A DNA stretch of 64,000 bases, taken from Longitalea arenae. Its GTDB lineage: Bacteria > Bacteroidota > Bacteroidia > Chitinophagales > Chitinophagaceae. The notes below the pieces were generated by a model. The model was not told where the DNA came from. It worked only from the letters and a program-made list of their open reading frames with translations, and did not search any database. The DNA lies in NCBI RefSeq assembly GCF_016924755.1, contig NZ_JAFFJX010000018.1, forward strand, positions 1 to 64,000. Direction: 5' to 3'. The position numbers and the translations under genes are program-made. Positions 5,856-22,006 of this stretch are shown one piece after another (the stretch's first letter is position 1; each line of letters opens with the position of its first letter).

Positions 5856-8738
5856 ATGAGTAAACGACGACTACTAACTGGTTTATTGCTTATCCTTTTA
5901 TGCAGGCTGCAGACCACTGCCCAGGAGGCAGATAACTACAGCGGTTACTTTGCGGAAGCTTATCGATTGTACCCGAATATCCCGCAGGGTATACTGGAAG
6001 CTGCGGCCTGGTCCGCTTCCCGGATGTATAATATGCAGCCTACCACGCATGGCGATGGCGATGAAGTGGCTATGCCTTTGCGTTATGGGATCTTCGGACT
6101 GATCGAAGATGGCAAAGGTTATTTCAAGAACAACCTTACGGCCGTAACTGCCTTAAGCGGTTTAACGGCGGAACAATTCAAAAAGGATGTCCGGCTGCAG
6201 ATCCTGTCCGTGGCGAGGTTCCTCAGCAATGAGGCCGGAAAACAAAAAGCGGGCGCCCGTCCCAGCGCCGAAGCTTTTGTGCATGTGCTGGATAAGCTCT
6301 CCGAGATCCCCGACGATGGAACAGCGGTTAATAAATATGCGCATTTATTGTACACCTATGATGTGTATGATCATTTACAGCGCGGTTTTGTTTCGCCCCG
6401 CTTAAAACAATTGCCCCGCCCTGTACAGCTCGACAAGATCTATGCCCCGCAAACCTTACGCACCTTGCGGGCGCCCGGCGTGCAGGTGAATTATTCACAG
6501 GATAAAATAAAAGCCAATGGAACTGTTTTACCTACCAGCCATACAACAGCTGCCAGCAATGCCAGAACTGAAAGCGTTACTGATATTGCGGCCGTGCAAA
6601 GCACTGATTATCCCCCGGCTTTGTGGGACCAGGCGAACACCAGCAATTTTACGGTAGGCCGTGGCGGCGTTGTGCCAACCAATATCACCATACATACCAC
6701 ACAGGGAAATTATGCGGGCACGATCTCCTGGTTCAATAACCCATCCGCAAAAGTCTCGGCCCATTATGTAATCCGCTCTTCCGATGGACAGATCACCCAG
6801 ATGGTACTGGAGAAAGACAGGGCCTGGCATGTGTACAATAACAATTCCTACACATTTGGCATTGAACACGAAGGTTTCGTTGACCAGGGCAATACCTGGT
6901 ATACCAATGCCATGTATAACAGTTCGGCTGCCCTGGTACGAGATATTTGTGCCGACTGGAATATCGATCGCTCGAAATGTTATCGCGGGCCTGCTTCTGC
7001 TACCGTAGTAGTGCTGCCCCGGGAAGTACGCATCAAAGGCCATCAACATTATCCCGATAATGACCATACTGATCCCGGCAGGTACTGGAACTGGGTGAAA
7101 TATGCCGACCTGATCAATCCACCTACCGCCGTTACCGTTGCTTCTTTTGCAGTGAAAGATCAAAACACCGGACTGGCCATTGCCAGCGCAGCCGTTGCCA
7201 TCACCAAACCCGATGGTACTACCGCCAGCGCTACTACCAATGCCAGCGGGCAACTCGTGTATGGACTGGACAGCGGCCGTTACAGTTTTACTTTTTCCAA
7301 AACAGGGTATAAAAGCCTGGCCACTTTCTTTATAGGCGGCCCCAACGACAGTGTGTATGCCGATATCAACCTCGATGCGGCCAGCACCGCCCGGGTAGCT
7401 ACCAATACTTCACCCCTGCTTACGACCAGTAACAACCAAATGGTGTTGACCGGTTATGTACGTGATGCAGACGCCAACAGCGCCCTGGCCGGGGTACAGG
7501 TGCAGGCAGCTAATTATACTGCTACTACCGATGCCAGGGGATTCTTTTCCATAACGCTTCCTGCCGGTACGGTTGCTCCTGGCAGCACACCACCCACGAT
7601 CTCTATCCAATCAAGCAAGGCGGGTTATCTCACCAACAGCATTCAGCATTTGTATGCCATTCCCGATACCTATGAAATGCAGATCGCTTTAACCGCAACG
7701 GCTTCCCCCCGTGCTGCCGGACTGCGCAGCCTGGGTGACCAGATCATTCGCCGCCATGGTTTATTTGATAAAACGATCGCCGAACAATTGGAATTTACAG
7801 GCAGCTTTACGCCCACCACTTTCAATGCCCGCGAGCAAGCAAGTGTTAACACCGCCGCCCTGCTGGCAGCTGTACCAACGGTGATCCGCGTAGTTACCAA
7901 TTGCGCCTGCGTCAGCTGCGCCCGTCCACGCGTACAGGTCATGAGCCTGGAAGCCTATGTACAAACCGGTGTAGATGATGAATGGGTGAGCAGTTGGAAC
8001 GCCGCTTCCCTGCAGGCAGGTACAGTGGCTTACCGTTCACGCGGCGCCTGGTTCGTGCAACATCCTGTTGCCAGCAATTATGATATCTCGGCTGCTGCCT
8101 GTCACCAGACCTGGCAAAGCGACCGGGCAAGCAGTGTAAAAAATGCGGCCATCGCTACAGCAGGTATTGTGCTCATTAAAAACGGCGCTATTTATAAAGC
8201 AGAATACTGCGCTGAATCCAATAACTCGGGTTGTGGGGATGGCTTCAGCGGCACCGGCACCGATTATCCCTGTATTGCCGACAGCCGTTGTGCGGGCCGC
8301 ACCAAAAGCGGACATGGCCGTGGCATGTGCCAGTGGGGTTCCAGCTTCTGGGGCAGCGATCAAACCTATAGCTGGATCCTGAATCATTACTATAATCCCG
8401 ACAGCGCCGCGCTTCAAACGACCACCATCGCCGGCGCCAGTGGCAACAACAGCGAGAGCAAGATCACCGAAGATGGCGCATTGAAGCTGGCGCCCAACCC
8501 TACCAGTGGTGCTTCTATCAGCATTGAATACACGCTGGCTGATGTATCACAGCCGGCCAGCATTGTAGTGACCGATAACTTCGGCAAATCGGCCCAACAG
8601 CGCAATGTGGTATTGCAGCAGGGACTGAACCGCTTAACGGTGAATACCAGCGGGCTCAAGCCCGGGATCTATAATGTTACCATTCGTCTGGGCGCTTCAG
8701 GAAAATCAGTAAGTAAGAAATTACTTGTTGTGAAATAG
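5856..8738 (+). CDS. T9SS-exported amidase fused to a SpoIID domain
   Basis: 960 residues. In order: signal peptide (1-22); helical domain ~26-120 with a lysozyme/SLT-like feel (YPNIPQGILEAAAWSASR, RYGIFGL); Amidase_2 domain ~265-425, with likely zinc ligands H280 (ITIHTTQG), H396 (KGHQHYP) and D406 (HTDPG); two carboxypeptidase-regulatory-like beta domains (~427-520, ~529-610); SpoIID/LytB-like domain ~676-852, with EW in DDEWVSSW at the position of the SpoIID catalytic Glu and the GHGRGMCQWG signature; type A T9SS domain ~879-960. Amidase_2 enzymes cut the MurNAc-L-Ala bond and SpoIID enzymes cleave denuded glycan strands, so one secreted protein may do both steps. From 7128 onward it is nearly identical to the next gene. 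Confidence 0.88.
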   Translation: MSKRRLLTGLLLILLCRLQTTAQEADNYSGYFAEAYRLYPNIPQGILEAAAWSASRMYNMQPTTHGDGDEVAMPLRYGIFGLIEDGKGYFKNNLTAVTALSGLTAEQFKKDVRLQILSVARFLSNEAGKQKAGARPSAEAFVHVLDKLSEIPDDGTAVNKYAHLLYTYDVYDHLQRGFVSPRLKQLPRPVQLDKIYAPQTLRTLRAPGVQVNYSQDKIKANGTVLPTSHTTAASNARTESVTDIAAVQSTDYPPALWDQANTSNFTVGRGGVVPTNITIHTTQGNYAGTISWFNNPSAKVSAHYVIRSSDGQITQMVLEKDRAWHVYNNNSYTFGIEHEGFVDQGNTWYTNAMYNSSAALVRDICADWNIDRSKCYRGPASATVVVLPREVRIKGHQHYPDNDHTDPGRYWNWVKYADLINPPTAVTVASFAVKDQNTGLAIASAAVAITKPDGTTASATTNASGQLVYGLDSGRYSFTFSKTGYKSLATFFIGGPNDSVYADINLDAASTARVATNTSPLLTTSNNQMVLTGYVRDADANSALAGVQVQAANYTATTDARGFFSITLPAGTVAPGSTPPTISIQSSKAGYLTNSIQHLYAIPDTYEMQIALTATASPRAAGLRSLGDQIIRRHGLFDKTIAEQLEFTGSFTPTTFNAREQASVNTAALLAAVPTVIRVVTNCACVSCARPRVQVMSLEAYVQTGVDDEWVSSWNAASLQAGTVAYRSRGAWFVQHPVASNYDISAAACHQTWQSDRASSVKNAAIATAGIVLIKNGAIYKAEYCAESNNSGCGDGFSGTGTDYPCIADSRCAGRTKSGHGRGMCQWGSSFWGSDQTYSWILNHYYNPDSAALQTTTIAGASGNNSESKITEDGALKLAPNPTSGASISIEYTLADVSQPASIVVTDNFGKSAQQRNVVLQQGLNRLTVNTSGLKPGIYNVTIRLGASGKSVSKKLLVVK

Positions 8739-8745
8739 TAACAAA

Positions 8746-8807
8746 GACCTGTCAGGTACACATCAGGGGGCTGCCAACGCAGGCGGCTAAAGTGTACCTG
8801 ACAGGTC
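8746..8807. repeat. hairpin element, copy 1
   Basis: GACCTGTCAGGTACAC (8746-8761) and its exact reverse complement (8792-8807) flank a 30-base centre containing AGGCGGCTAA. It starts 8 bases after the stop codon of the amidase gene. A dispersed palindromic repeat; it may also act as a terminator or mRNA end stabiliser. Confidence 0.85.
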
Positions 8808-8855
8808 GCATAAAAACGGTGGCTAGTGGCTAGTGGCGAGTAAGGGATAAACAAA

Positions 8856-8917
8856 GACCTGTTAGGTACACATCGGCGGCCTGCATATTCAGGCGGTTAA
8901 AGTGTACCTGACAGGTC
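8856..8917. repeat. hairpin element, copy 2
   Basis: Same element as at 8746, with one substitution in the left arm (GTTAGG for GTCAGG) and a diverged centre. A GGCTAGTGGCGAGTAAG-type spacer separates it from copy 1. Confidence 0.85.
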
Positions 8918-8932
8918 GCACTAAAACGAACC

Positions 8933-8993
8933 GACCTGTCAGATGGACTCAATTCACTGATCTTTCAATGGCCTGCAGTCCACCTTACAGGTC
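8933..8993. repeat. hairpin element, diverged copy 3
   Basis: Arms GACCTGTCAGATGGACT (8933-8949) and AGTCCACCTTACAGGTC (8977-8993) pair at 15 of 17 positions. Several arm substitutions have a partial compensating change, which suggests the fold rather than the sequence is kept. Ends 24 bases before the next start codon. Confidence 0.65.
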
Positions 8994-9017
8994 TTCATCC
9001 AGATCAAACTTTATACT

Positions 9018-11975
9018 ATGAATAAAACGCGACAATTCCTTTTAGGGGCACTGGCGGCTTTGCTATTCTCGCCCGTAGCGGCGCAACAGCCGGCTGGCGC
9101 CACCCATATTACATTTACCGTAAAAGATCAAAATACGGGATTTGCCGTACCCGGTGCGGTGATCCAGGTTACAGCGCCCAATGGCAGCAGCAGCAGTTTG
9201 ACAGCAGCTGCCAACGGCAAAGTCCTATTCACGGCCGTGAATGGAAAGTATGACTTCTCCATTGCAGCCAATGGTTACAAACCTTTAGCCACTTATTTTT
9301 CATCGGGCGAAGTAAATAATATTGAAGCACGCATTAACCTGGAACCAGCTGACAATACTGTGCGCCTGGAACAACCGGCAGCGCGCGCAGGCGTGAATCA
9401 AACCACTATCAGTGGCTATGTACGGGATGAGACGAATAACAGTCCGCTCGCCGGTGTGCAGGTGAACAGCGGCAGCGCTTCAGCCATTACCGACGCCAGG
9501 GGCTATTTTTCATTGGCGGTTCCCGCATCCCAGGCAGCTATCGCACCCAATACTATACCGGCAAAAACAACGATCACTTTTACGAAGAATGGTTACGCAC
9601 CTTATACTGCTCAACGGTATGCCATACCCGATGCTTATACCATGAAAGTGGCGCTTTCGCCGGCGAGTGCAGCGCGAACGCAGCAGCCTGCTGGCGAACC
9701 GGAAAAGCAGGTACATGGCATCTTCGACCGAACAGCTGCCGATGAGCAGCAGCGATCAGCGCCATCAACTGTACCAGAGGCCCGGGTAGAAGCGGCCCTG
9801 GCCGCCACGGTACCCCGCAGCATCCGGGTTGGCATTAGCTGTAATTGCACTTCCTGCAGTTCGGTGGAAGTAATGACACTGGAAGAATATGCGCAATCTG
9901 GCCTGGATGATGAATGGATCGCCAGTTGGGGCGCCGCCTCTTTACAGGCCGGGTCGGTTGCTTACCGTACCTACGGCGCCTGGTATGTATTACATCCCGT
10001 AGCCAGCAGCTATGATATTGCAGCCACTACCTGTAACCAGGTTTGGCAGGCCGACAGATATACCAGTTGCGTGAACGCTGCCAAAGCAACGGCCGGCATT
10101 GTGCTGGTAAAAAATGGCGCGATCTTCCGGTCGGAATATTCAGCAGAGAATAACAACTCCGGTTGCGGCAATGGCTACAGTGGCACCGGTTCAACCTGGC
10201 CCTGTATTTCGGATGGCCGTTGTGCCGGTTATGCCAAGAATGGCCATGGCCGCGGCATGTGTCAATGGGGCTCAAGCCGCTGGGCCAGCGATAAAACCTA
10301 TACCTGGATCCTGAACCACTACTACAATCCGGGCAGCGTCTTCATTCAACTGCCACCGAGCCCTGCCGTTACCGTTGCTTCTTTTGCAGTGAAAGATCAA
10401 AACACCGGGCTGGCCATTGCCAGCGCAGCCGTTGCCATCACCAAACCCGATGGCACTACCGCCAGCGCTACTACCAATGCCAGCGGGCAGCTGGTGTATG
10501 GACTGGACAGCGGCCGTTACAGTTTTACTTTTTCCAAAACAGGGTATAAAAGCCTGGCCACTTTCTTTATAGGCGGCCCCAACGACAGTGTGTATGCCGA
10601 TATCAACCTCGATGCGGCCAGCACCGCCCGGGTAGCTACCAATACTTCGCCCCTGCTTACGACCAGTAATAATCAAATGGTATTGACCGGTTATGTACGC
10701 GATGCAGACGCCAACAGCGCCCTGGCCGGGGTACAGGTGCAGGCAGCTAATTATACTGCTACTACCGATGCCAGGGGATTCTTTTCCATAACGCTTCCTG
10801 CCGGCACGGTTGCTCCTGGCAGCACACCACCCACGATCTCTATCCAATCAAGCAAGGCGGGTTATCTCACCAACAGCATTCAGCATTTGTATGCCATTCC
10901 CGATACCTATGAAATGCAGATCGCTTTAACCGCAACGGCTTCCCCCCGCGCTGCCGGACTGCGCAGCCTGGGTGACCAGATCATTCGCCGCCATGGTTTG
11001 TTCGATAAAACGATCGCCGAACAATTGGAATTTACAGGCAGCTTTACGCCCGCCACTTTCAATGCCCGCGAGCAAGCAAGTGTTAACACCGCCGCCCTGC
11101 TGGCAGCTGTACCAACGGTGATCCGCGTAGTTACCAATTGCGCCTGTGCCAGCTGCGCCAGTCCACGCGTACAGGTCATGAGCCTGGAAGCCTATGTACA
11201 AACGGGTGTAGATGATGAATGGGTGAGCAGTTGGAACGCCGCTTCCCTGCAGGCAGGTACAGTGGCTTACCGTTCACGCGGCGCCTGGTTCGTGCAACAT
11301 CCTGTTGCCAGTAACTATGATATCTCGGCTGCTGCCTGTCACCAGACCTGGCAAAGCGACCGGGCAAGCAGTGTAAAAAATGCGGCCATTGCTACAGCAG
11401 GTATTGTGCTCATTAAAAACGGCGCTATTTATAAAGCGGAATACTGCGCTGAATCCAATAACTCGGGTTGTGGGGATGGCTTCAGTGGCACCGGCACCGA
11501 TTATCCCTGTATTGCCGACAGCCGTTGTGCGGGCCGCACCAAAAGCGGACATGGCCGTGGCATGTGCCAGTGGGGTTCCAGCTTCTGGGGCAGCGATCAA
11601 ACATATAGCTGGATCCTGAATCATTATTATAATCCCGACAGCGCCGCGCTTCAAACGACCACCATCGCCGGCGCCAGTGGTAACAACAGCGAGAGCAAGA
11701 TCACTGAAGATGGCGCATTGAAGCTGGCGCCCAACCCCACCAGCGGCGCTTCTATCAGCATTGAATACACGCTGGCTGATGTATCACAGCCGGCCAGCAT
11801 TGTAGTGACCGACAACTTCGGCAAATCGGCTCAACAGCGCAATGTGGTATTGCAGCAGGGACTGAACCGCTTAACGGTGAATACCAGTGGGCTCAAGCCC
11901 GGGATCTATAATGTTACCATTCGTCTGGGCGCTTCAGGAAAATCAGTAAGTAAGAAATTACTTGTTGTCAAATAG
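9018..11975 (+). CDS. T9SS-exported protein with two SpoIID domains
   Basis: 985 residues. Signal peptide (1-22), two carboxypeptidase-regulatory-like domains (~29-110, ~134-215), SpoIID-like domain 1 (~274-440, with LEEYAQSGLDDEWIASW and GHGRGMCQWG), two more regulatory-like domains (~452-530, ~554-635), SpoIID-like domain 2 (~701-877), and a type A T9SS domain (~904-985). There is no amidase domain. Both SpoIID modules keep the DDEW segment and a shared cysteine set (NCxC-x2-C, SGCG, PCI, GMCQWG) that could form disulfides or bind metal. The C-terminal 536 residues are almost identical to the upstream protein, whereas the first module has diverged. SpoIID proteins act after an amidase has stripped the stem peptides, so the upstream gene is a logical partner. 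Confidence 0.87.
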   Translation: MNKTRQFLLGALAALLFSPVAAQQPAGATHITFTVKDQNTGFAVPGAVIQVTAPNGSSSSLTAAANGKVLFTAVNGKYDFSIAANGYKPLATYFSSGEVNNIEARINLEPADNTVRLEQPAARAGVNQTTISGYVRDETNNSPLAGVQVNSGSASAITDARGYFSLAVPASQAAIAPNTIPAKTTITFTKNGYAPYTAQRYAIPDAYTMKVALSPASAARTQQPAGEPEKQVHGIFDRTAADEQQRSAPSTVPEARVEAALAATVPRSIRVGISCNCTSCSSVEVMTLEEYAQSGLDDEWIASWGAASLQAGSVAYRTYGAWYVLHPVASSYDIAATTCNQVWQADRYTSCVNAAKATAGIVLVKNGAIFRSEYSAENNNSGCGNGYSGTGSTWPCISDGRCAGYAKNGHGRGMCQWGSSRWASDKTYTWILNHYYNPGSVFIQLPPSPAVTVASFAVKDQNTGLAIASAAVAITKPDGTTASATTNASGQLVYGLDSGRYSFTFSKTGYKSLATFFIGGPNDSVYADINLDAASTARVATNTSPLLTTSNNQMVLTGYVRDADANSALAGVQVQAANYTATTDARGFFSITLPAGTVAPGSTPPTISIQSSKAGYLTNSIQHLYAIPDTYEMQIALTATASPRAAGLRSLGDQIIRRHGLFDKTIAEQLEFTGSFTPATFNAREQASVNTAALLAAVPTVIRVVTNCACASCASPRVQVMSLEAYVQTGVDDEWVSSWNAASLQAGTVAYRSRGAWFVQHPVASNYDISAAACHQTWQSDRASSVKNAAIATAGIVLIKNGAIYKAEYCAESNNSGCGDGFSGTGTDYPCIADSRCAGRTKSGHGRGMCQWGSSFWGSDQTYSWILNHYYNPDSAALQTTTIAGASGNNSESKITEDGALKLAPNPTSGASISIEYTLADVSQPASIVVTDNFGKSAQQRNVVLQQGLNRLTVNTSGLKPGIYNVTIRLGASGKSVSKKLLVVK

Positions 11976-11982
11976 TAACAAA

Positions 11983-12044
11983 GACCTGTCAGGTACACAT
12001 CAGGGGGCTGCCAACCCCGGCGGTTAAAGTGTACCTGACAGGTC
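11983..12044. repeat. hairpin element, copy 4
   Basis: Duplicate of the element at 8746, again 8 bases after a stop codon. Both 16-base arms are intact; the centre differs at a few bases. Confidence 0.85.
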
Positions 12045-12092
12045 GCATAAAAACGGTGGCTAGTGACTAGTGGCGAGTAAGGGATAAACAAA

Positions 12093-12154
12093 GACCTGTT
12101 AGGTACACATCGGGGGGCTGCCAACCCAGGCGGTTAAAGTGTACCTGACAGGTC
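12093..12154. repeat. hairpin element, copy 5
   Basis: Duplicate of the element at 8856, including the GTTAGG variant in the left arm, which confirms that the hairpin pair was copied with the coding module. Confidence 0.85.
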
Positions 12155-12271
12155 GCATAAAAACGGGTCGAGCTGTGAGGTTTCACAGAAACCGCTGCCA
12201 GCTCAACACACGATGACGAACCTTACAGGTTTTGCCAAACAATCATTCTTAATAAACACAAACAACCATCT

Positions 12272-12823
12272 ATGAAAAGAAACACCGCAAAGAACATGTC
12301 ATTGGCCATGCTGATCAGCATGATGGCGATCCTGTCTTGCAACAAACAGGAAAAACCGGCCACGGAAGCGCAGGACCAGGAAATCACACAAACACCGGTA
12401 CCAGAAGCGCAGGCAGGCACGGAATCTATAACAGCAGCCCGCGTAGCTTCACCCGTACCCGGTTATACGGTCACTTATCCGTATGGGATCAAGAATCCTA
12501 ATTATGCGGCGGGTTATCACACGGGTGATGATTATGCGGCGCCCACCGGCTCAAAAGTAGTGGCCGTACTCGATGGCACTATTGCCTGGTCGAACAATAA
12601 CGGCGGGGCCTATGGCCGCTGGATCGGACTGCGTGCGTCCAATGGCCGCGACTATGTGTATTGCCATTTATCGGTACGCTCTGTTAGCACCGGCACCAAA
12701 GTAGTTGCCGGTCAAAAAATAGGGGAAGTAGGCGCTACAGGTAACACCACAGGTCCACACCTGCATTTCGAAGACCGGCCCAAAGGCGGTGGGTATGGAC
12801 AGGTACGGAAGCCGACCTGGTAA
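12272..12823 (+). CDS. M23 family (LytM) peptidase lipoprotein
   Basis: 183 residues. A lipoprotein signal peptide ends at AILSC, followed by a ~35-residue acidic, proline-containing linker and a compact M23 domain. HTGDDYAAP provides the His-x3-Asp zinc pair and HLHFE the HxH motif, so the active site is complete. M23 enzymes cut peptide cross-bridges in peptidoglycan. The protein is probably anchored in the outer or inner membrane, unlike the T9SS-secreted neighbours. Same strand as the amidase and SpoIID genes but 296 bases downstream, so co-transcription is uncertain. Confidence 0.88.
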   Translation: MKRNTAKNMSLAMLISMMAILSCNKQEKPATEAQDQEITQTPVPEAQAGTESITAARVASPVPGYTVTYPYGIKNPNYAAGYHTGDDYAAPTGSKVVAVLDGTIAWSNNNGGAYGRWIGLRASNGRDYVYCHLSVRSVSTGTKVVAGQKIGEVGATGNTTGPHLHFEDRPKGGGYGQVRKPTW

Positions 12824-13078: not shown

Positions 13079-14326
13079 ATGAAACAAACAAAATGCCCAA
13101 ACAACACAAGCACTAAACGGCTGCATGGCCTGCTGGCTATGATGGCCGTGATCGCCTTATCAGCCACTGCCTGCAAAAAAGGCGCTGGGAACAAAGCAGC
13201 CGTCACCGATGAGGAAAGAGCTCCGCTAACCGAAGCTACCCAAACCCATACCTATAGTAAGATCTTTGATGGCGGAACAGGCGGCTATCATTCCTTCCGC
13301 ATTCCGTCGATCGTTCGTACCAATGCCAATACCCTCATCGCTTTTGTAGAAGGCCGCATGAGCATGAATAAAGACCATGGCAATATCAATGTAGAATATA
13401 AACGGTCTACCGATAATGGCGCCACCTGGTCGGCCATGATGGAAGTGGTTGGCGCAGGCCTGGGCACCTGGGGTAATCCAACGGCGGTGGTTGACCGCAG
13501 TACAGGCCGCATCTGGGTATTTATGAACTGGAATGCAGAAAATAAAAACATCGGCGGCACCGATGGTTATGAAAAAATTGATACCTGGGGCGACCGTAAA
13601 GTATACTATTCTTACAGCGATAACGATGGCCTCAGCTTTTCAACACCTACCGATATGACCAGTACCCTGCTGCCCCCCAATTATACCTGGGATGCCATTG
13701 GACCCGGCGTAGGTATTCAAACCAGCAATGGCACTTTGGTTATACCTGCCCAGGGCAGAAATATTTACAGCACCGATCATGGGGCTACCTGGCATTATAA
13801 ATTAATACCGGGCGGCACCAGCGAAGGCGCTATTGTAGAATTGATGGATGGGCGCCTGATGCGTAATGACCGGGCCACTACCACGGTTTGGAATACCGCC
13901 AAACGCCGCTGGGTATCGCGGGGAACCATCGCCGGCAGCTTCAGCACATTTGCTCCCGATGATGTATTGCTCGATCCGGCCTGCCAGGGCTCTATTGTTC
14001 GTTACACCGGTGCACCTGACCGCATCATGGTGCTGAATTCAGCCAGTACAGAAACGCGCTGCAAAATGCGGGTGCGCATCAGTTATGATGGCGGCCAAAC
14101 CTGGCCGATCAGCCGAAAGATCTATGACTGGTTAACAGACAGCGAGGCTTTTGCCCAGGGTAAAGGCGGTTATAGCAGTATGGTAAAAACAGCCGACTAT
14201 ACTATTGGCGCTCTTATCGAGATCAATGAGAACACCGGCGACAGTCAGAACAGCCATCGTTCCATTGAGTTCCATAAATTCAATCTTCCCTGGATGTTGA
14301 ATGGAAGTGCGGAACCTATTCCTTAA
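13079..14326 (+). CDS. exo-alpha-sialidase lipoprotein (GH33-like)
   Basis: 415 residues. Lipobox SATAC with Cys32. The sialidase signature FRIP lies at residues 73-76 (the Arg normally binds the sialic-acid carboxylate). At least three Asp-box repeats follow: STDNGATW, STDHGATW and SYDGGQTW, plus a weaker SDNDGLSFS. GAIVELMDGRLM fits the conserved Glu region. The predicted reaction is release of terminal sialic acids from glycans at the cell surface. It follows the peptidoglycan hydrolase genes on the same strand. Other BNR-repeat hydrolases share the Asp boxes, but FRIP makes sialidase the best call; substrate preference is unknown. Confidence 0.85.
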   Translation: MKQTKCPNNTSTKRLHGLLAMMAVIALSATACKKGAGNKAAVTDEERAPLTEATQTHTYSKIFDGGTGGYHSFRIPSIVRTNANTLIAFVEGRMSMNKDHGNINVEYKRSTDNGATWSAMMEVVGAGLGTWGNPTAVVDRSTGRIWVFMNWNAENKNIGGTDGYEKIDTWGDRKVYYSYSDNDGLSFSTPTDMTSTLLPPNYTWDAIGPGVGIQTSNGTLVIPAQGRNIYSTDHGATWHYKLIPGGTSEGAIVELMDGRLMRNDRATTTVWNTAKRRWVSRGTIAGSFSTFAPDDVLLDPACQGSIVRYTGAPDRIMVLNSASTETRCKMRVRISYDGGQTWPISRKIYDWLTDSEAFAQGKGGYSSMVKTADYTIGALIEINENTGDSQNSHRSIEFHKFNLPWMLNGSAEPIP

Positions 14327-14333
14327 TAATAAA

Positions 14334-14371
14334 TGTGGCATCCGCCAGTTGGTGGATGCCACAATATTTTT
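14334..14371. terminator. bidirectional terminator
   Basis: TGTGGCATCC (14334-14343) pairs with GGATGCCACA (14354-14363), followed on the plus strand by ATATTTTTTA. It lies between the convergent sialidase and histidine kinase genes and probably serves the plus strand best. Confidence 0.8.
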
Positions 14372-16263
14372 TATGTCATGGGCACCTGTACCAGTAAACG
14401 GCAGCCGCCCATAGGTTTTGAATCGATGGTGAGGGTACCGCCCAGGGTTTCAGCCCGGTTCAGCATGTTCAGCAGGCCAATGCCTTTGGTTTGCTTTTTC
14501 GTATCGAATCCTTTTCCATTATCTTCAATAAGCAATGACAGGCGGTCATCCTGTTGTTCAATGGCGATCCGCACATAACTTGCTTCTGCATACCGCATGA
14601 TATTATTGGTTTGCTCCTGGATGATGCGGTACAGCATCAATTGTTTATCCTGCGACAACAGATCTTCCAGTGAAGGGTCACATTCAAAATCTACTATTAA
14701 AGGCCGCGCCAGCTGCATGTTCTTGATGATATCTTCCACCGGGTCTATCAGCCCCACCTCATTTATAATAGAAGAATTCAGTGATTTGGAGATCTTTCTT
14801 ATTTCCTGGATCGCGATATCGATGTACTGCGTTGTTTTTTCGATCAGGAACTCCTGGTCTTCGGCATTAGTCCTGGCGGTGGTCAGCATGATCATGGCCG
14901 ATGAAAGGATCTGGTTCACATTATCATGCAATTCCTTGGAGATCTCATTGCGCTCATATTCCTGGCCGGAGATCATGGCCTGGTTGATCCGCAGGCGTTC
15001 CTTTTCCTTTTGCTGTTCCAGTTCCTCTTCCAGTTTTCTTTTTTCGGTAAGGTCCTGGATGGCGCCGATCGCGCGCACCGCAATGCCATCTTTATATATG
15101 ATGTAAGCGCGGTCCGACATATACTTATAACTGCCGTCGGCGCAGCGGAAACGGTATTCATCGTGCCAGTAATTCTTCTGCGCCAGCAGCATGGCATTGA
15201 TCTGCTGCATGACCCGGTGGCGGTCTTCCACATGGATCTTTTCCAGCAACCAGTACAGGTCGTTTTCCATCTCGTTCTGGGTATAACCGGTAAGCTGGCA
15301 GAAAGGCTCACTGCGGTAAATGGTGCCTTTTTCAATATTCCAGTCCCAGATATAATCTGACGTAGCTTTGGTTGTATAGTAGAACCGTTCGTTTATTTTA
15401 CAGATCTCTTCCTGCGCTTTTTTCTCGAAGCTTTGCAAGAGGTTCTCACTGTCAGACAGGCGCAGCTCGGCTTCCCGGCAGGCAGTGATGTCATTGAAAG
15501 TACAAGCAACCAGTCCGGGTACCGAATCATTGAACTCTTCCAGTAAACAGGTGCTTACCGATAACCAGGTAAGCACTCCCTGGGCATTCCTGAAGCCAAG
15601 CACACTCTTTTTGAAAATGGCGCCCGATTTCACGGTAATGATGCCCGGGTAATCTTCTACCGGCATGGGCGAACCATCTTCATGAAAGGCGCGGCCACCG
15701 ATATCTGAAAGGTTCTTCCCAATTATCTGGTCGTGGGTGAAACCGGTGATCTCGCAGGCTTTATGATTGGCAGAAATTATGGTTCCCAGGTCGCCCTGTA
15801 ACAACAGTACGCCTTCTTCCAGGGAATTAAGCAGGGTCTTATACATCACATCGGGCCGGATATCTTTTTTACGCTGTATCACCGCCTGCAGATCGCGCAG
15901 GATGATCACTACATCGAGCAGGTATTGCGTACCCGGAAACTTATGGGTATAACAGGAAATGCGAAAAGTGCGGCCGTCAGGGGTGGATACAAAAATATCT
16001 TCCACCTGTTCATCGAGGGCGATGGCCCTTTGCAGCTGGTTTTGTACTTCAACATGCCCTGGAAAGAGCCCGTCAAGGAAATCGACGATATTCTTTTTAG
16101 CAGGTCTTCGCGGTTGCCTGAACCAAAGTTCTTCGGCCATCACATTCCAGTGCAGTAAATTAAAATGCCGGTCAGTAATAAATACGGCGTCCTGGCAGTC
16201 GTTCAGAATAGCTTCAAGCCAGGGAGACATCTCTCGGTAATTAGTTGCAAAAATGGGGGTCAT
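14371..16263 (-). CDS. cytoplasmic PAS-domain sensor histidine kinase (HisKA_3)
   Basis: 630 residues from ATG at 16263, chosen because the longer frame (to 16350) adds a Cys/His-rich stretch unlike this family. No membrane segment. Three PAS domains: ~20-115, ~145-255 and a PAS_3-like one ~300-410 (WDWNIEKGTIYRSEPF). Then a coiled stretch and a HisKA_3 dimerisation domain with the phospho-acceptor near H446 (KELHDNVNQ). The ATPase has an N-box (EQTNNIMRYAEAS), G1 (EDNGKGFD) and G2 (KGIGLLNMLNRA). Such kinases usually pair with LuxR/NarL response regulators, but none is encoded nearby, so the partner must be elsewhere. Confidence 0.88.
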   Translation of the reverse strand: MTPIFATNYREMSPWLEAILNDCQDAVFITDRHFNLLHWNVMAEELWFRQPRRPAKKNIVDFLDGLFPGHVEVQNQLQRAIALDEQVEDIFVSTPDGRTFRISCYTHKFPGTQYLLDVVIILRDLQAVIQRKKDIRPDVMYKTLLNSLEEGVLLLQGDLGTIISANHKACEITGFTHDQIIGKNLSDIGGRAFHEDGSPMPVEDYPGIITVKSGAIFKKSVLGFRNAQGVLTWLSVSTCLLEEFNDSVPGLVACTFNDITACREAELRLSDSENLLQSFEKKAQEEICKINERFYYTTKATSDYIWDWNIEKGTIYRSEPFCQLTGYTQNEMENDLYWLLEKIHVEDRHRVMQQINAMLLAQKNYWHDEYRFRCADGSYKYMSDRAYIIYKDGIAVRAIGAIQDLTEKRKLEEELEQQKEKERLRINQAMISGQEYERNEISKELHDNVNQILSSAMIMLTTARTNAEDQEFLIEKTTQYIDIAIQEIRKISKSLNSSIINEVGLIDPVEDIIKNMQLARPLIVDFECDPSLEDLLSQDKQLMLYRIIQEQTNNIMRYAEASYVRIAIEQQDDRLSLLIEDNGKGFDTKKQTKGIGLLNMLNRAETLGGTLTIDSKPMGGCRLLVQVPMT

Positions 16264-16474
16264 AGGGTTTCTCAAGTAAAATGTTATGGTCACGGATCTT
16301 TGTAACACACATCCCAAATTATGCCAATGATGTAAACACTTTACTGTCAACGCGAATACAGATCAGGCACAGGATATTCTTTCCCACAAATAGAAAAACG
16401 TTCCCATACATTAGTATCTTATACGAGTCCCATGTTTGTGCATAAATATTTGTTTCTTATACAATTAAATATTT

Positions 16475-21907: not shown

Positions 21908-21938
21908 CCCCCGGCCTCTAATCGAATCGAGTAGGCGG

Positions 21939-22003
21939 CCGTGAGCCAATCGCTCACGGTGCGCCTCTCACACCACCGTACGTACGGTTCCGTATACGGC
22001 GGT
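21939..22003 (-). ncRNA. group II intron domains V and VI
   Basis: Minus-strand ACCGCCGTA pairs with TACGGTGGT (one G-U pair) with a two-base bulge and a short distal stem, the size and shape of catalytic domain V. It is followed by GTGTGAGAGG and then the domain VI hairpin. This is the conserved 3' core of bacterial group II introns. Confidence 0.75.
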
Positions 22004-22006
22004 TTG

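What the first reader, a model, noticed from the sequence alone, without database searches (positions are those of the whole stretch)
7128..12157. Indel-free 1.8-kb tandem duplication under strong synonymous constraint
The SpoIID-T9SS module plus two hairpins is present twice, 3,237 bases apart. By hand I count ~34 substitutions in 1,611 coding bases, 31 of them silent, no indel. So both copies are either selected as functional proteins or kept alike by gene conversion. Crossing-over between them would remove exactly the second gene while leaving the first intact, and unequal exchange would add copies, so the locus can change copy number.
Basis: partly seen in the sequence, partly recalled or inferred. 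Interest (0 to 1): 0.72.

Follow-up and report, generated by a model that had tools for sequence, protein, structure and literature searches.

The report
Two wall-enzyme genes copying each other
Two neighbouring genes for secreted cell-wall-cutting enzymes in a bacterium share a nearly identical end, and comparison with related species shows that the duplication is old and the two ends have repeatedly been overwritten by one another while both stay under selection; it is a new, clear example of a known process.

Summary
The reading needs correcting: this is not a young tandem duplication. The same two-gene layout (amidase + module; second SpoIID unit X + module) is resolved in 6 of 10 held genomes of the genus. 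In all six, the two modules of one genome are closer in DNA to each other than to any other genome's copies (in protein 4 of 6). A tree in which each position follows the species tree is rejected (p-AU 1e-36). Yet two species still group by position in the first ~720 columns, and in one species a ~560-base identical tract abuts 60-68% identical sequence. So an old duplication is being homogenised by gene conversion, most consistently over the SpoIID core. Here the last reset covered the whole module plus two hairpins, at about 9% of the synonymous distance to the nearest species. Since then each copy has gained mainly silent changes (13:1 and 15:2), so both appear functional. Copy-number change is possible by geometry, but 6 of 6 resolved loci hold two modules. 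Known kind: concerted evolution.

The parts
5856..8738 (+). Gene 1 (960 aa): signal peptide (by eye), Amidase_2 (N-acetylmuramoyl-L-alanine amidase), then module copy M1 (two carboxypeptidase-regulatory-like beta domains, SpoIID, T9SS type A sorting tail)
7128..8738 (+). Module copy M1, coding part to the stop codon
7932..8174 (+). SpoIID Pfam stretch of M1 (residues 693-773), with the conserved Glu codon at 7980-7982
8310..8339 (+). GHGRGMCQWG motif of the SpoIID domain of M1
8746..8807 (.). Palindrome 1 after gene 1, inside the copied tract
8856..8917 (.). Palindrome 2 after gene 1, inside the copied tract
9018..11975 (+). Gene 2 (985 aa): X fused in frame to module copy M2; two SpoIID domains and a T9SS tail
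9018..10364 (+). X: N-terminal part of gene 2 with its own beta domains and SpoIID; about 50% identical in protein to the module
10365..11975 (+). Module copy M2, coding part to the stop codon
11983..12044 (.). Palindrome 1 after gene 2, copied with the module
12093..12154 (.). Palindrome 2 after gene 2, copied with the module
12272..12823 (+). M23 peptidase, neighbour in 4 of the 6 resolved loci (not found in the fetched stretches of G004 and G005)
13079..14326 (+). BNR-repeat sialidase-like protein, neighbour in 6 of the 6 resolved loci

Best explanation
Two adjacent genes encode secreted cell-wall hydrolases of different architecture that end in the same 536-residue module (two beta domains, SpoIID, T9SS tail). 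The module was duplicated before the sampled members of the genus diverged; most likely it sat first in the two-SpoIID gene 2 and a copy was later fused behind an amidase to make gene 1. Since then the copies have been repeatedly homogenised by gene conversion between direct repeats about 3.2 kb apart, with tracts from a few hundred bases up to the whole module and its 3' flank. In this genome the last tract ran from about 7128 to about 8929 and most likely went from gene 1 to gene 2. Both copies are kept by purifying selection. Likely function: the amidase strips stem peptides and SpoIID cuts the glycan, a set for degrading peptidoglycan at or outside the cell surface. Shown: domains, homogenisation, tract structure, purifying selection. 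Inferred: recombination mechanism, direction, origin, enzyme activity, biological role.
For: Within-genome DNA identity of M1/M2 is 97.9 (own), 98.3 (G007), 85.3 (G004), 80.6 (G005), 80.4 (G003) and 75.9% (G002), each higher than any value to another genome. 'By position' topology rejected: p-AU 1e-36 whole, 1e-69, 1e-44, 1e-108 for three segments. Core columns 780-1260: all six genomes pair M1 with M2 (support 100, 100, 97, 100, 89, 87), while columns 0-720 join G003_M1 with G002_M1 at 100. Four-fold sites of the core: within-genome identity exceeds that to the sister species in 6 of 6. G003: dS 0 in the last third against 2.1 in the first; run-length permutation p 1e-4 (G003), 7e-4 (G004), 0.005 (G005), 0.019 (G007). 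G005, a single 9.03-Mb contig, shows the same mosaic. A His/Ala difference in the GHG motif of SpoIID is shared by both copies in 6 of 6 genomes (GHG in own, G007, G003; GAG in G004, G005, G002), while X is GHG in 6 of 6. One X per resolved genome. Copied stretch past the start of the stop codon differs: about 207 bases here, 17 in G003, 2-6 in G007, G005 and G002 (weak in the last two), none found in G004. Direction: G007 has the palindrome after gene 1 only. Origin: G243, another genus of the family, has one X-module gene plus M23, no second module and no amidase relative. Selection: 13:1 and 15:2 silent:replacing, p <= 4e-6 each.
Against: In protein the within-genome pair is closest in only 4 of 6 genomes (G005 and G002 fail). 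The run-length test is not significant in G002 (0.065) nor in this genome (0.52), where whole-module homogenisation leaves no contrast; on third positions alone G007 is not significant either (0.12), while G002 is (0.029). The pure 'by genome' tree is rejected in columns 0-720 (0.0025) and marginally in 780-1260 (0.032), in the latter because species order differs, not the pairing. Outside the core, four-fold identity within G005, G003 and G002 is not above that to the sister species in columns 0-780. Direction inside the module is ambiguous. Five of six resolved assemblies have about 20-40 contigs, so smoothing of long identical tracts in assembly cannot be fully excluded. Origin rests on one outgroup genome.
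Confidence: 0.9

Rival explanations
1. Independent recent duplications in each lineage: every species made its own second module.
For: Would also give copies that group by genome.
Against: Same in-frame junctions and neighbours in 6 of 6 resolved loci; internal tract edges in G003, G004, G005; grouping by position of G003_M1 and G002_M1 in columns 0-720 with support 100; X not duplicated.
Confidence: 0.05
2. Purifying selection alone keeps the copies alike, without conversion.
For: Low dN/dS between copies in all six genomes, 0.03-0.20; both copies separately constrained here.
Against: Silent sites are homogenised too: within-genome four-fold identity in the core 0.69-0.97 against 0.46-0.68 to the sister species; the noncoding flank with the palindromes is copied too, 10 of 182 differ.
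Confidence: 0.02
3. Repeated unequal crossing-over (expansion to three modules, then contraction) rather than non-reciprocal conversion.
For: Direct repeats of 1.8 kb at 98% are good substrates; expansion followed by deletion can also homogenise (general knowledge).
Against: One X and two modules in 6 of 6 resolved genomes; several tract edges lie inside the module.
Confidence: 0.08
4. Assembly artefact: one real copy written twice, or two divergent copies smoothed.
For: Three of ten genus assemblies break in or at the edge of the module, so the repeat is hard to assemble.
Against: 34 scattered, mostly silent differences with both junctions assembled; G005, a single contig, shows the same layout and mosaic.
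Confidence: 0.03

Closest known systems
Long-lasting recurrent concerted evolution in prokaryotes (tuf, amo, psbA, fla and others; PMC6053082; abstract, outline and section 6 seen)
   Same: Paralogues closer within a genome than to orthologues, conserved synteny, at least five species (here six in DNA), conversion as the cause.
   Different: Its table of 19 bacterial genes has no peptidoglycan hydrolase and names no Bacteroidota (tuf is given as '6 phyla'). Here only a C-terminal module shared by two proteins of different architecture is homogenised, with partial tracts visible; one genus only, no dating in years.
SpoIID lytic transglycosylases and the SpoIIP-SpoIID pair (C. difficile, PMC6221140, passages seen; Waddlia, PMC6635528, passages seen)
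   Same: PF08486 above cut-off in both proteins. The Glu of the DDE motif falls, in a weak alignment, on the chain position that by its numbering should be E101, the proposed catalytic Glu of C. difficile SpoIID (numbering inferred). There an amidase (SpoIIP) must act before SpoIID on purified wall.
   Different: In C. difficile amidase and SpoIID are separate proteins; here an unrelated amidase type (Amidase_2) and SpoIID are fused in gene 1, SpoIID is doubled in gene 2, and both carry a T9SS tail.
Chitinophaga amidase-SpoIID proteins (L078, L080, L082)
   Same: Amidase relative, SpoIID unit and, at the end, a match to the module's tail in one open frame of 976-1001 codons.
   Different: One SpoIID unit in each of these 3. 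It is about 54% identical to X and 44% to the module, while the midpoint-rooted tree places the Chitinophaga units beside the modules (98/96).

Membership tests
Concerted evolution | Paralogues within a genome more alike than orthologues across genomes | tested here: met
   DNA: 6 of 6 resolved genomes; protein: 4 of 6
Concerted evolution | Duplication older than the species compared | tested here: met
   Same layout in 6 of 10 genomes, amidase|module junction in 9 of 10
Concerted evolution | At least five species (threshold of PMC6053082) | tested here: met
   Six species-level genomes
Gene conversion | Tracts with edges inside the repeat, silent sites included | tested here: met
   Run-length p 1e-4 (G003), 7e-4 (G004), 0.005 (G005), 0.019 (G007); not significant in G002 (0.065) and own (0.52); third positions: G007 0.12, G002 0.029
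Gene conversion | Non-reciprocal, recombinase-dependent transfer | not testable with these tools
   needs a genetic experiment
SpoIID/LytB family | Profile match above curated cut-off | tested here: met
   PF08486 30.1 and 61.0 bits against 23. TIGR02669 above its cut-off only for gene 2 (112 against 83.3); gene 1 below (55.5)
SpoIID/LytB family | Glu of the active site conserved | tested here: met
   E285 in 20 of 20 aligned units
SpoIID/LytB family | GHGxGM motif conserved | tested here: inconclusive
   Met in both window copies and in X; but the His is Ala in both modules of G002, G004 and G005 (6 of 12 module copies), and 18 of 20 aligned units have it. That the motif is a family hallmark rests and recall
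SpoIID/LytB family | Glycan-strand cleavage | not testable with these tools
   no assay
SpoIID/LytB family | SpoIID fold in a predicted structure | tested here: inconclusive
   Model mean pLDDT 58.9, large parts of the SpoIID region below 50; no fold search made
T9SS cargo | C-terminal type A sorting domain | tested here: met
   TIGR04183 24.1 and 25.0 bits against 23; Pfam PF18962 below its cut-off, 24.7 and 24.6 against 27; 88 TIGR04183 matches at E <= 0.001 in the genome

The most novel reading that the evidence does not exclude
The conversion is not a passive by-product of proximity. The SpoIID core is kept alike between two enzymes of different make-up (amidase-linked and X-linked) because they must act as a matched set on one substrate, so that even a change in the GHG motif (His to Ala) is present in both copies or in neither, while beta domains and sorting tail are freer to diverge by position.
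Probability: 0.2. Interest if true: 0.6.

Novelty: new member of a known kind. Interest (0 to 1): 0.4.

Why it matters
It is a compact natural case of conversion tracts in a bacterial protein module: six species, caught at different stages (whole module, ends plus core, 3' part, core only). It warns that orthology of such modules cannot be read from similarity, and that a 98% identical tandem module can be an old duplication. The locus also joins an amidase and SpoIID in one protein with a secretion tail, a testable self-sufficient peptidoglycan degrader.

Tried and rejected
Recent tandem duplication: rejected by the conserved layout in relatives. Purifying selection alone: rejected by four-fold sites. 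Clumping of the 34 sites as a sign of several tracts in this genome: none found. Direction of conversion from diagnostic sites inside the module: G003/G002 sites lean to the M2 type, sites shared by G004 and G005 lean to the M1 type, so ambiguous. Conversion from X into the module around the GHG motif as the source of His: X-to-module identity there is no clearer in His genomes (46-50 of 60) than in Ala genomes (42-49 of 60), so not supported. Rfam for the hairpins: no match among the window's 2 hits. AlphaFold model of the module: poor, no fold search made. PDB by sequence: three SpoIID entries, weak (E 0.02-0.13).

Papers, search listings only unless said: concerted evolution in tandem paralogues (15 of 128 listed, 12 of 214 listed), SpoIID with amidase and denuded glycans (4 listed of 5), Niastella/Chitinophaga and peptidoglycan (12 of 12), SpoIID in Bacteroidetes (2 of 2), Longitalea (2 of 2), bacteriolytic Chitinophaga (8 of 285). 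PMC6403190 was searched for terms: 0 mentions of SpoIID. None of the listed titles or abstract starts described this locus; that is not a full literature check.

Subsets: one search used 16 of the 33 loci plus L038, with 18 units of six genomes; one search used 20 sequences. In one search (12 of 394 family genomes matched at E <= 1e-30) only 2 candidates per listed genome were scored, so copy counts for the genus rest, where all candidates of the 10 genomes were scored, and for G243 (53 of 53 scored).
Full report
OBSERVATION. The two copies lie 3,237 bases apart. 7128-8738 and 10365-11975 differ at 34 of 1,611 positions, 31 silent, without indel; 8739-8920 differs at 10 of 182; identity collapses outside. 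Gene 1 (960 aa) is Amidase_2, two beta domains, SpoIID, T9SS tail; gene 2 (985 aa) is a first unit X (beta domains plus SpoIID) followed in frame by the same module. X is about 50% identical to the module in protein.

RELATIVES. Of 10 held genomes of the genus, own included, 6 have both genes intact with one X and two modules (G000, G002, G003, G004, G005, G007); 3 (G001, G006, G008) are broken in or at the edge of the module; 1 (G009) has the sialidase neighbour but no module or X match. By equal contig length G007 is Longitalea luteola, G003 Niastella caeni, G004 Niastella soli, G002 Niastella sp. OAS944. The amidase|module junction is seen in 9 of 10. The M23 gene follows in 4 of the 6, the sialidase in 6 of 6. 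So the duplication is older than the sampled species.

CONCERTED EVOLUTION. M1/M2 DNA identity within a genome is 97.9 (own), 98.3 (G007), 85.3 (G004), 80.6 (G005), 80.4 (G003), 75.9 (G002), each above all values to other genomes; in protein this holds for 4 of 6. The amidase part and X together give the species groups (own,G007), (G003,G002), (G004,G005), all at 100. A tree with M1 and M2 each following that species tree is rejected (p-AU 1e-36 whole; 1e-69, 1e-44, 1e-108 by segment). A pure by-genome tree is not rejected for the whole (0.50) or the last segment (0.22); it is for columns 0-720 (0.0025), where G003_M1 and G002_M1 join at 100 and a mixed tree is not rejected (0.065); and marginally for 780-1260 (0.032), where all six pairs nevertheless join by genome in the best tree.

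TRACTS. Sliding identity: G003 100% from about column 1080 to the end but 59-74% over roughly the first 720; G004 93-97% in the first five windows, 67-90% next, up to 98% in the core; G005 mostly 92-97% in the core, 63-84% elsewhere apart from the window at its edge. Run-length permutation: p 1e-4 (G003), 7e-4 (G004), 0.005 (G005), 0.019 (G007), 0.065 (G002), 0.52 (own, homogenised throughout); third positions only: 1e-4, 0.001, 0.027, 0.12, 0.029, 0.65. Four-fold sites of the core are more alike within than between sister genomes in 6 of 6; in columns 0-780 this holds for own, G007 and G004, not for G005, G003 and G002. A replacement in the core follows the same rule: the His of GHGRGM is Ala in both modules of G002, G004 and G005 and His in both modules of own, G007 and G003, with X always His. 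On the species tree that distribution needs at least two changes.

LAST EVENT HERE. dS between the copies is 0.085, against 0.94 (amidase part) and 0.92 (X) between own and G007, so the last whole-module reset is at about 9% of that distance. Polarised with G007, 14 changes fell in M1, 17 in M2, 3 unclear, unclumped; silent:replacing is 13:1 in M1, 15:2 in M2, 3:0 unclear, against a neutral replacing fraction of 0.68-0.75 (p <= 4e-6 each). The copied stretch past the stop differs by species. G007 has the palindrome after gene 1 only, so the last transfer here most likely went from gene 1 to gene 2; inside the module the direction is ambiguous.

ORIGIN. G243, of another genus in the family, has X fused to a shorter module, then M23; gene 1 as query finds no second module and no amidase relative in that genome at E <= 0.001. 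The two-SpoIID gene may be older and the amidase fusion younger (inference, one genome). In the protein tree X, the Chitinophaga units, L038 and the modules form one group (100/99). Three Chitinophaga genomes carry an amidase-SpoIID protein of their own.

FUNCTION. The active-site Glu is present in 20 of 20 aligned units. In C. difficile SpoIID needs the prior action of the amidase SpoIIP and loses activity when E101 is replaced (passages); Waddlia SpoIID cuts denuded glycan (passages). An amidase and SpoIID in one protein with a T9SS tail, beside an M23 peptidase, suggests a secreted peptidoglycan-degrading set. This is inference; prey, self or debris as target is open, and in the three GAG species the module's activity may be altered.

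VERDICT. Real, well supported, and of a known kind. The table in PMC6053082 (section 6) lists 19 bacterial genes, none a peptidoglycan hydrolase; its database was not checked. Copy-number change remains possible but is not seen in 6 of 6 resolved genomes.

Noticed in passing
window 21926-22004, - strand: Rfam group II intron match above the gathering score.
   Followed up: no
both modules of G002, G004, G005 (L036, L035, L037): The His of the SpoIID GHG motif is Ala in both copies of the module, while X keeps His; in G243 (L132) the module reads GSG. The module may have altered activity there.
   Followed up: partly
L038 5663-9115 (G001): A second, diverged locus: amidase joined to a T9SS tail without SpoIID, followed by an X-like unit with its own tail, one SpoIID unit for two genes.
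   Followed up: partly
L078, L080, L082: Chitinophaga proteins with amidase, SpoIID unit and tail in one frame.
   Followed up: partly
L097 5961-9335: In Luteimonas an amidase relative lies just upstream of a SpoIID relative, so the pairing recurs in another phylum.
   Followed up: no
L111, L112, L113, L115, L118: Diverged relatives (74-76%) of the 62-base palindrome elsewhere in G005, G004 and G002: a dispersed palindrome family.
   Followed up: no
window 14371-16350, - strand: PAS/histidine-kinase-like protein (named by eye) beside the sialidase in all 10 genus genomes, also in G009, which lacks the module.
   Followed up: no
G000:C22:867279-868559: A second amidase paralogue (48% identical) whose match stops before the module; similar ones in 7 other genus genomes.
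   Followed up: no
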